Shown piece by piece: positions 1-2,473 of a stretch of 59,229 nucleotides of DNA; within the stretch, counting starts at the first letter, position 1; every line of letters begins with the position of its first letter. The notes under the pieces were generated by a model that worked only from the letters and a program-made list of their open reading frames with translations, made no database searches and was not told the origin of the DNA. The position numbers and the translations under genes are program-made. The stretch spans positions 1-59,229 of the forward strand of contig JAJUHD010000002.1 in NCBI GenBank assembly GCA_029268085.1, written 5' to 3'. Source of the DNA: Bacillota bacterium. GTDB lineage: Bacteria; Bacillota; Clostridia; Oscillospirales; Oscillospiraceae.

Positions 1-154
1 ACCAAGCAGCTTGTCTCCTACGCGGCGATAACGTTATAGGCAAAGCCGCCTTACGATACCAGCTTTATGCAGGCTGGCGGACAATTCACAAGGATGATCT
101 GCCATGCAAATAAACAAAGAATAGCTTTTGCATATATCCTTGTATTATAAAGTA

Positions 155-360
155 GTAGTTCTTAGAGACCCTTCTCCGGGTCTGTGCTACACTGTAAAGG
201 ATGCTGTGGATTGGTTCATGCCTCCTACCGCCAGACGGTTTGATTAAGGCTCCAACCACAGTCCTTTACCAGTTTGTTAATCAGTTAGATACCGCCAGAC
301 GGTTTATGTGGAACAAGGTTACAAGCGTAAGGTGTCCTGTGGAACCAGCATCAAATAAAC
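155..360 (+). ncRNA. putative IS110 bridge RNA (5' hairpin + target-binding loop + donor-binding loop)
   Basis: Hairpin AGACCC(166-171)/GGGTCT(178-183); long stem GTAAAGGA..CTGTGG..TTGG (194-214) with CCAA.CCACAG.TCCTTTAC (252-269); identical TACCGCCAGACGGTTT segments at 226-241 and 290-305. Confidence 0.7.
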
Positions 361-377
361 CTGTTGGAGGTATCATC

Positions 378-1559
378 ATGATTTGTGTGGGAATTGATGT
401 AGCCAAGGATAAGCACGACTGCTTCATCCTCAGCACGGAAGGTGAAGTCCTTATGGATGTGTTCACCATCCCAAATAATGCAGAAGGGTTTGATCTGCTC
501 TTACAGACGATACATCGTTGTACCGGTCCTCAAGATAAAATAAAAGTAGGACTTGAGGCAACCGGACACTACAGCTACAACATCCTCGGATTCCTGCTTG
601 ACAAAGGTCTGGCCACCTATGTCATCAATCCGCTGCACACCAACCTTTACCGAAAAAGTCTCAGCCTTCGTAAGGCGAAGACTGACCGTATCGATGCGCG
701 TACTATTGCATCTATGCTCATGTCTGATGTGGACCTCAAGTCCTACACAGACACAGCATACCACAACGAGGAGCTAAAATCACTCACAAGATACAGATTC
801 GATAAAGTCAGAGAAAGAGCAAAGCTGAAACAGTCGGTATCTCGCTTGGTCACGATCCTGTTCCCAGAGCTGGAAAAGATGGTTCCAAGCCTCCATATGG
901 TCTCTGTTTACGCGCTTCTCAGCGAGTTTCCAGGGGCCAGACAGATTGCCGGTGTCCATCTGACACGGTTGAAGACACTCCTGCAAGAAGCATCTAAAGG
1001 ACGCTACGGACGAGATATGGCGACGAAGCTTCGAGATGCTGCAAGATGTTCTATTGGATCCGTTATGCCCGCCAAGTCGCTGGAACTGCAACACACCATT
1101 CGGCTGATTCGGGAACTGGATGCCGAGATCAATGATATTGAGGCGGCGATCCAGACCATGATGGAAGATATACACTCTCCCATTACAACCATCCCCGGCA
1201 TTGGTGTTCGTATGGGTGCTATGATTCTGGCTGAGGTCGGCGACTTCTCTCGCTTCGATTCCCCCGACAAAATTCTGGCTTATGCTGGCTTGTCGCCGTC
1301 TACTTACCAATCCGGACAGCTCTCATTATCTGGGGCATATTCGCACATGGAGAAACGAGGCTCCAGATATCTTCGCTATGCACTCTACCATGCCACCAAA
1401 TACGTCTGCCTTTGGGATCCAACCTTTGCGGCTTATCTGGCTAAGAAACGTGCAGAAGGCAAGCACTACAACGTCGCTCTCTCGCACGCTACTAAGAAGT
1501 TAGTTCGATTGATTTACGCCATGGAGAAATCCGGACAGCCATACAATAGTGCTGCATAA
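378..1559 (+). CDS. IS110 family transposase (DEDD recombinase, transposase IS116/IS110/IS902 C-terminal domain)
   Basis: MICVGIDVAKDKHDCFIL N-terminus, KTDRIDARTIA, TTIPGIGVRMGAMILAEVGDFSRFDSPDKILAYAGLSPSTYQSG; RBS ttggagg upstream of ATG 378; the 201 start in the ORF track is too far upstream. Confidence 0.95.
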   Translation: MICVGIDVAKDKHDCFILSTEGEVLMDVFTIPNNAEGFDLLLQTIHRCTGPQDKIKVGLEATGHYSYNILGFLLDKGLATYVINPLHTNLYRKSLSLRKAKTDRIDARTIASMLMSDVDLKSYTDTAYHNEELKSLTRYRFDKVRERAKLKQSVSRLVTILFPELEKMVPSLHMVSVYALLSEFPGARQIAGVHLTRLKTLLQEASKGRYGRDMATKLRDAARCSIGSVMPAKSLELQHTIRLIRELDAEINDIEAAIQTMMEDIHSPITTIPGIGVRMGAMILAEVGDFSRFDSPDKILAYAGLSPSTYQSGQLSLSGAYSHMEKRGSRYLRYALYHATKYVCLWDPTFAAYLAKKRAEGKHYNVALSHATKKLVRLIYAMEKSGQPYNSAA

Positions 1560-1678
1560 ACCTCATGCTCGTAAGTTCAGCAGGCGTCCGGTTGGACGTC
1601 AGCTTTGCTATACCCTTTTTCAAACCGTCTGTTTTTTTGCCAATCCATATTTTTAGACTTGACTTTTAATAGTTAGTC

Positions 1679-2404
1679 TTAATCTCCGGCTTTAAAGCCG
1701 CTGCTTTTTAATTTTTGCAAAGATAAAAGAGTTTCTTTTGTATCGGTAAGGCGCTCAAGGGCTTCCGATTTCAGTGAAGCGGAGAGTCCAGAAACCTCTT
1801 TCCCGATTTTATCCGTCAGTTGGGCGAGCCGTTTTTCATAGAGCGGATCACTTGCAATAAGCCGCGCATGTCCGATAAGAAGCTCGGCGGGGGAATAGGG
1901 CTCGTCAGTGCCGGCAGATGCAGTCAATATTTCGTATATGCCGCTGTCGTCCACAAGCTGTTCGGACAGTACCCTGAAGCCGTTATTATAGAGCCATTTG
2001 CGCAGATGAGCCGATTTTGACATAGGCTGAAGGATAAGAAAGCAGGAGTTTTCTCTTGTCCATGGTGCGGCCTCAAGTATCGACGCGATATTTTCACCGC
2101 CCATCCCAGCGATGACGACGGTATCGATGTTTTTTCCTTTAAGTGCGGAAAGCCCGTCGCAAAGATGAAACTCGATCCTGCCGTCCTGGCCATATTCCGC
2201 AGCCGTTTGTTTAGCGTGACGGAGCGGCTCTTTATTTATATCGGTTGCATAAAGCTTTCCGCCATATCCGTTCTGTGCGAGCCAGACAGGGATATATCCG
2301 TGGTCTGTCCCGACATCGGCAGCCCCGATACCGTCAGGAACGAGTTCTGCAATGGCTTTAAGCCTTGCCGAAAGCCTAAGTAAAGACAATTGTTGTTCCT
2401 CCAT
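1679..2404 (-). CDS. trmK: tRNA (adenine(22)-N(1))-methyltransferase TrmK
   Basis: LRLSARLKAIAELVPDGIGAADVGTDHGYIPVWLAQNG... IAGMGGENIASIL typical of the COG2384/TrmK family. Confidence 0.9.
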   Translation of the reverse strand: MEEQQLSLLRLSARLKAIAELVPDGIGAADVGTDHGYIPVWLAQNGYGGKLYATDINKEPLRHAKQTAAEYGQDGRIEFHLCDGLSALKGKNIDTVVIAGMGGENIASILEAAPWTRENSCFLILQPMSKSAHLRKWLYNNGFRVLSEQLVDDSGIYEILTASAGTDEPYSPAELLIGHARLIASDPLYEKRLAQLTDKIGKEVSGLSASLKSEALERLTDTKETLLSLQKLKSSGFKAGD

Positions 2405-2473
2405 ATAACAATACCGTTCCAATACTTTCGGCTTAAGCGAAATTACCGGAACGGCATATAGTCCTCAATGATT

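What the first reader, a model, noticed from the sequence alone, without database searches (positions are those of the whole stretch)
139..1684. IS110 element with a readable bridge RNA whose guides match both element ends and the right flank
The leader (about 155-360) folds by eye into a 5' hairpin and two large loops. Loop 1 has an 18-bp stem (194-214 with 252-269) enclosing an internal loop. Its 3' side, GATTAAG (242-248), is the exact complement of CTTAATC (1678-1684) at the right flank; its 5' side, CATGCCTCCT (217-226), agrees 7/10 with CATATATCCT (131-140) at the left flank. In loop 2, AGTTAG (283-288) recurs at the right end (1671-1676), and ACAAGG (313-318) is the complement of CCTTGT (138-143) at the left end. 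All four are consistent with a CT core at 139-140 and 1678-1679, and with the IS621-type arrangement where left guides read as top strand and right guides pair with top strand. This gives a specific target prediction (CATATATC-CT-TAATC, directly after the trmK stop codon) for a possibly uncharacterised bridge recombinase. Weak points: the loop 2 left guide needs a 1-nt offset and individual matches are short.
Basis: partly seen in the sequence, partly recalled or inferred. Interest (0 to 1): 0.82.

Follow-up and report, generated by a model that had tools for sequence, protein, structure and literature searches.

The report
RNA-guided transposon homing to ribosome-binding sites
This is a small bacterial jumping gene of the known IS110 family that carries a readable two-part guide RNA, and comparison with about 100 related copies shows that the guide really does choose the insertion site, which is usually the ribosome-binding site in front of a gene.

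Summary
Window 139-1679 is an intact IS110 element with an IS621-type bridge RNA. In 89 parsed relatives the target guides covary with each copy's own flanks: left guide 394/576 matches against 276 by permutation, z=13; right guide 256/290 against 156, z=17; 0/20,000 each. Donor guides covary with element ends (LDG 73 of 76, RDG 80/80). Leader helices show compensatory changes. The RE-LE junction rebuilds TTGACT-17-TATTAT or a close variant in 74 of 74 elements.

Two corrections. (1) The predicted single target, CATATATC-CT-TAATC after trmK, is a composite. The assembly holds two uninterrupted sites, each joining exactly at the CT: CATATATC-CT-TAATCTATATCG (contig C129) and ATAACCTC-CT-TAATCTCC, the Shine-Dalgarno of nif3 after trmK (C156). 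The right guide matches both perfectly. The window has the left half of one and the right half of the other. (2) The '18-bp stem' of loop 1 borrows a strand that covaries better with loop 2.

Beyond the finding: this clade inserts antisense into Shine-Dalgarno sequences (CAT 4-13 nt from the core in 63/97 sites, 20 expected), and its left end re-supplies AAG of AAGGAG. IS900 (CATGN6TCTCCTT) is a precedent. New member of a known kind.

The parts
139..1679 (+). IS110-family element including both copies of the CT core (139-140 and 1678-1679)
   Evidence: Ends conserved in relatives; both ends delimited by uninterrupted sites in the same assembly
131..138 (+). Left target half LT (CATATATC) of site A; its uninterrupted form CATATATC-CT-TAATCTATATCG is in contig C129
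   Evidence: C29 end = C2:1-141 = C129:1-141
1680..1684 (+). Right target half RT (TAATC) of site B; its uninterrupted form is ATAACCTC-CT-TAATCTCC (Shine-Dalgarno of nif3 overlapping the trmK stop codon), contig C156
143..148 (+). -10 box (TATTAT) of the promoter assembled at the RE-LE junction of the circular form
   Evidence: -35 TTGACT/TTGACA/TTGATT, 17-nt spacer, -10 TATTAT/TATAAT in 74 of 74 junctions; no promoter-like match in the integrated form
155..345 (+). Predicted bridge RNA (5' end inferred from the -10; 3' end uncertain)
   Evidence: Alignment of 59 leaders
155..190 (+). 5' stem-loop of the bridge RNA
   Evidence: one pair with 26 double changes: CG/AU/UA
205..260 (+). Target-binding loop; stem 205-214 with 252-260
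   Evidence: 98.1% of cells paired
217..226 (+). Left target guide LTG, CATGCCTCCT
   Evidence: covaries with left flanks
227..239 (+). Apical hairpin ACCGCCAGACGGT of the target loop
   Evidence: pair with 20 double changes
242..248 (+). Right target guide RTG, GATTAAG, complement of CTTAATC
   Evidence: covaries with right flanks
262..334 (+). Donor-binding loop; basal stem 262-269 with 327-334
   Evidence: 99% paired, pairs with 17 and 22 double changes
283..288 (+). Left donor guide LDG, AGTTAG, matches RE 1671-1676
   Evidence: AGTTAG/AGTTAA covaries with RE in 73 of 76 elements; two of the three exceptions are degenerate or misread ends
291..303 (+). Apical hairpin of the donor loop (same 13-mer as 227-239)
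313..317 (+). Right donor guide RDG, ACAAG, complement of LE CTTGT 139-143
   Evidence: AACAAG/AACGAG covaries with CTTGT/CTCGT in 80/80
378..1559 (+). Recombinase gene (393 aa): RuvC-like DEDD domain (D7, E60, D103, D106) and Tnp domain (S312)
   Evidence: Pfam PF01548, PF02371; NCBIfam NF033542; IS621 8wt6 and ISCro4 9t56
1655..1677 (+). Right end RE; -35 box TTGACT at 1659-1664
1679..2422 (-). trmK, neighbouring host gene whose stop codon overlaps the core
   Evidence: ORF; trmK-nif3 order in sister genomes; gene name by similarity and context, not by a family search

Best explanation
An autonomous IS110-family element with an IS621-type bridge RNA. Shown by sequence: after excision the joined right and left ends would rebuild a sigma-70 promoter (TTGACT-17-TATTAT) that reads into a leader RNA with a 5' stem-loop, a target loop and a donor loop; the target-loop guides match each copy's target halves and the donor-loop guides match the element's own ends, all around a CT dinucleotide. 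Inferred by homology to IS621: the DEDD/serine recombinase binds this RNA, brings circular donor and target together and exchanges strands at the CT, without duplicating target bases. Shown across relatives: the guides keep a constant part complementary to the Shine-Dalgarno strand (...CTCCT / GAAAG...) and a variable part, and most elements lie antisense in ribosome-binding sites, 4-13 nt from the start codon. Inferred: because the left end begins CTTG, it restores AAG next to the target's GAG, so the downstream gene keeps an AAGGAG and insertion is tolerated. For the window's copy the two target halves come from two different sites that share CTTAATCT; either recombination between two IS copies at these sites or an assembly join put them together.
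For: Family and catalytic residues. Conserved ends and 89 parsed elements. Guide-flank permutation. Natural within-genome control: in G094, 7 copies with one guide set and 5 with another sit at sites that follow their own guides (2 of 792 label assignments as good, p=0.0025). Donor covariation. RNA covariation. Junction promoter in 74/74. Two empty sites in the own assembly that each join exactly at CT. Shine-Dalgarno targeting: CAT 4-13 nt left of the core in 63/97 sites vs 19.6 expected, left flank ending CTC in 62/97; ATG with ORF of at least 50 codons in 40/71 sites vs 6% at random positions and 20% at AGGAG. The same arrangement in an E. faecalis relative at 42% protein identity (L201).
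Against: No RNA or recombination data. The window copy's left guide matches only 5/8 (site A) or 4/8 plus a possible G-T (site B). One G094 copy (L165) sits at a site that fits the other guide better. The junction of the nif3 half with the IS left end is not itself in the assembly. About a third of sites show no obvious start codon.
Confidence: 0.92

Rival explanations
1. The matches are chance or ordinary conserved leader sequence; site choice is made by the protein, which recognises the Shine-Dalgarno motif, not by an RNA.
For: Part of the match (CTCCT, GAAAG) is shared by most copies, so a fixed protein preference would also give it; the window's left match alone is not significant.
Against: The variable positions (-8..-4 and +5..+7) still match own flanks far above permutation (z=10.7 and 10.2 with one element per guide), rare guides meet rare flanks (CTGTCGG/CTGTCGG, CTATTCT/CTATTCT, CTTAATC/CTTAATC), and two guide sets in one genome go to different sites.
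Confidence: 0.03
2. The window's copy really inserted in one site CATATATC-CT-TAATCTCC next to trmK, and C129 and C156 come from other strains or paralogous regions.
For: Contig C2 runs unbroken through both flanks, and no other contig of the assembly carries the IS ends.
Against: C29, C2 and C129 share exactly 141 bp (assembly-graph overlap), so C129 is an alternative continuation of the same left flank; trmK is followed by nif3 in C156 and in five sister genomes; each flank half has its own uninterrupted partner joined exactly at CT.
Confidence: 0.1
3. The flank pairing in the window is an assembly mis-join across two collapsed IS copies rather than a real rearrangement (a rival only to the history of this copy, not to what the element is).
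For: Genome bin with 7.8% contamination and both sites present uninterrupted; collapsed repeats are the usual cause of such joins.
Against: With overlaps of 141 bp a two-copy IS should have left other contigs ending in the IS; none was found.
Confidence: 0.4

Closest known systems
IS621 and its bridge RNA (IS110 group; PMC11208160, PMC11208158)
   Same: DEDD plus serine recombinase, 5' noncoding bridge RNA with target loop before donor loop, CT core, RE-LE junction promoter, same strand polarity of all four guides
   Different: Targets Shine-Dalgarno sites instead of REP elements; recombinase 393 aa against 328 residues in the 8wt6 chain and matched only in two stretches; both apical hairpins are ACCGC..GACGGT here; one leader strand could pair in two ways
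IS900 of Mycobacterium avium subsp. paratuberculosis (IS110 family; PMC8141618)
   Same: Published target motif CATGNNNNNNTCTCCTT is a start codon plus Shine-Dalgarno read on the opposite strand: the same target class and polarity
   Different: Bridge RNA guides of IS900 were not examined here; distant host and sequence; one motif for one element rather than many guide variants
seekRNA elements such as ISEc21 and ISEc11 (IS110/IS1111; PMC11187229)
   Same: RNA-directed site choice, natural reprogramming between close relatives
   Different: IS1111 types have the RNA downstream and reversed guide order; targets differ

Membership tests
IS110 family (IS110 group) | RuvC-like DEDD domain plus C-terminal Transposase_20 domain with catalytic serine | tested here: met
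   PF01548 E=7e-42, PF02371 E=1e-21, NF033542 above cut-off; D7, E60, D103, D106, S312
IS110 family (IS110 group) | Long noncoding region upstream of the transposase | tested here: met
   Leader 139-377 against 1560-1679 downstream
IS110 family (IS110 group) | No long subterminal inverted repeats | not tested
   not searched with a tool; only short ATA/TAT near the ends is seen by eye
IS110 family (IS110 group) | Insertion at a short core without further target duplication | tested here: met
   Empty sites have one CT, filled sites have CT at both ends
Bridge RNA (IS621 type) | Leader RNA with 5' stem-loop and two internal loops, supported by covariation | tested here: met
   98.6% of cells paired, 10 pairs with double changes, 95 such cells vs 31 in shuffles
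Bridge RNA (IS621 type) | Loop 1 guides match both strands of the target, loop 2 guides match the element ends | tested here: met
Bridge RNA (IS621 type) | Sigma-70 promoter reconstituted at the RE-LE junction | tested here: met
   TTGACT-17-TATTAT or close variant in 74/74 junctions; activity not tested
Bridge RNA (IS621 type) | RNA expressed, bound by recombinase, and sufficient with it for recombination in vitro | not testable with these tools
   needs experiment
IS1111 group | Noncoding RNA region downstream of the transposase, right guide before left guide | tested here: not met
   Leader is upstream; left guide comes first

The most novel reading that the evidence does not exclude
A whole clade of IS110 elements in Oscillospirales and Lachnospirales (with relatives in Bacilli) uses its bridge RNA to home to Shine-Dalgarno sequences: a constant guide part recognises the motif, a fast-changing part picks among genes, and the element's left end rebuilds the motif so that the invaded gene stays translated. 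This would be an RNA-guided safe-site strategy aimed at the translation start rather than at a gene or a repeat.
Probability: 0.6. Interest if true: 0.62.

Novelty: new member of a known kind. Interest (0 to 1): 0.47.

Why it matters
The clade offers 58 distinct left guides matched to real insertion sites, plus genomes in which two guide sets coexist. This is a natural data set for how much mismatch bridge RNAs tolerate, how guides change, and how a mobile element can use a nearly universal motif without killing host genes. It also shows that a bridge RNA read from one element can be checked against relatives by computation alone, and that the two flanks of an element in a draft assembly may belong to two sites.

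Tried and rejected
Rfam has no model for the leader (only tRNAs and two sub-threshold hits). A Monoglobus 1563-bp circular 'plasmid' (L111) looked like a captured IS circle, but its junction is AGTTAGTCT-CAC-CTCGTAT, which carries target bases, so it is more likely a collapsed IS contig. The left flank 1-138 at first looked like a repeated element because it occurs three times in the assembly; the copies end or start exactly at 141 bp, so they are assembly-graph overlaps. An outward promoter at the left end (TATAAT next to ACAAG) was considered; no fitting -35 was found by eye. One viral-contig scan failed; that collection was not needed.

Full report
Observation. The sequence at 139-1684 contains all motifs quoted. 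The 393-aa protein (378-1559) is an IS110 recombinase by Pfam and NCBIfam and matches IS621 and ISCro4, two bridge recombinases with solved structures, with D7, E60, D103, D106 and S312 at the places of the IS621 DEDD and S241 residues (residues named in PMC11208158). The element occurs once in its genome.

Relatives. A search of 99 related genomes and of the GTDB set gave elements of about 75-89% protein identity that keep the left end CT[TC]GTATTAT and the right end AGTTA[GA]TCT. From 89 parsed elements I read left flank, LTG, RTG, LDG, RDG, right end and right flank in one fixed register.

Guides against flanks. Over 72 distinct left sites the LTG agrees with its own flank at 394 of 576 positions (-8 to -1) against 276 (sd 9) when flanks are permuted; over 58 right sites the RTG agrees at 256 of 290 (+3 to +7) against 156 (sd 6); no permutation of 20,000 came near. 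Taking one element per distinct guide, and only the variable positions, leaves z of 10.7 and 10.2. The exact CT+5 right match occurs in 34 of 58 own pairs and 3.8% of cross pairs. For the window's element the RTG GATTAAG matches its flank 5/5, whereas it matches at most 3/5 of 35 other right flanks; its LTG match (5/8) is not remarkable alone. In genome G094, 12 copies fall into two guide groups whose sites follow the guide (exact p=0.0025), which removes differences between genomes as an explanation; one copy (L165) is an exception and fits the other group's guide.

Guides against element ends. AGTTAG or AGTTAA in the donor loop goes with GTTAGTCT or GTTAATCT at the right end in 73 of 76 elements, two of the three exceptions being degenerate or misread ends; GAACAAGG or GAACGAGG goes with CTTGTAT or CTCGTAT in 80 of 80. 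These may be few independent changes, so the counts are not probabilities. The RE-LE junction carries a -35 of TTGACT (67), TTGACA (4) or TTGATT (3) and, at exactly 17 nt, a -10 of TATTAT (72) or TATAAT (2), in 74 of 74 elements. No promoter-like match is found in the integrated form. This is the arrangement described for IS621 (PMC11208160).

RNA structure. The alignment of 59 leaders supports a 5' stem-loop, a target loop and a donor loop with apical ACCGC..GACGGT hairpins: 98.6% of cells paired, 10 pairs with changes on both sides, 95 such cells against 31 in shuffles. The strand 262-269 can pair with about 193-200 or with 327-334; the second covaries better. Whether both forms occur is unknown.

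Empty sites. The joined flanks were searched in the genus. Contigs C29, C2 (the window) and C129 share the same 141 bp; C129 continues past CATATATC-CT with TAATCTATATCG, without the element. Contig C156 holds the end of trmK followed by TAAGGAGGTTATTATG and nif3 (named by similarity and context); on the + strand this reads ATAACCTC-CT-TAATCTCC. Sister genomes also have this gene directly after trmK. So both element ends are confirmed to the base, but the two halves belong to two sites which share CTTAATCT. The IS copy in the window joins them. Whether this is a recombinant chromosome or an assembly join cannot be decided; no other contig carries the IS ends.

Target class. On the strand opposite to the element most sites read AGGAG plus a start codon: CAT lies 4-13 nt from the core in 63 of 97 sites (19.6 expected; mode 10-11), and ATG plus an open frame of at least 50 codons in 40 of 71 (6% at random positions, 20% at AGGAG). 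Filled sites read TATAATACAAG|GAGG..ATG (e.g. L017), so AAGGAG survives. That translation persists is inference. An E. faecalis relative at 42% protein identity also sits in such a site with matching guides by eye (L201). IS900 has the published motif CATGNNNNNNTCTCCTT (PMC8141618), which is the same target class. None of the papers found describes Shine-Dalgarno targeting by a bridge RNA in its title, abstract or the passages read, but subscription papers and preprints were not searchable.

Guide turnover. Pairs of elements with at least 97% identical RNA scaffold differ on average at 2.8 of 11 LTG positions, and some pairs at 5-7 (e.g. L059/L071, 99.4% scaffold identity, 5 differences), consistent with the natural reprogramming reported for seekRNA elements (PMC11187229).

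Noticed in passing
L055, 87 bp upstream of its element: A complete copy sits exactly at the LTG-coding DNA (GGTATAAGCCCC|CT) of a truncated copy of the same element, as if the guide's own gene had served as left target; the right flank is an ordinary RT.
   Followed up: partly
window 193-200, 262-269, 327-334: One strand of the leader RNA can form either of two mutually exclusive stems, both well conserved in most relatives; a possible conformational switch.
   Followed up: partly
L165 (G094): An element with one guide set sits at a site that fits the guide set of the other subfamily in the same genome, perhaps guided in trans.
   Followed up: no
window 1-138 and 1680 onward: The flanks of the element come from two different target sites, both also present uninterrupted in the assembly (C129, C156): strain mixture, IS-mediated rearrangement or mis-join.
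   Followed up: partly
family target consensus: The target strand resembles the 3' end of 16S rRNA (anti-Shine-Dalgarno, from memory), yet none of 97 left flanks carries GGATCACC; insertion at rRNA genes may be selected against.
   Followed up: partly
L090, L094, L096, L097, L101, L107: Some relatives carry a different or extra 5' stem-loop (TCATAGYC...GGCTATG) in front of the target loop.
   Followed up: no
L111 (NZ_OY725734.1): A 1563-bp 'complete plasmid' record consists only of one IS110 element with three target bases at the junction; probably an assembly artefact.
   Followed up: yes
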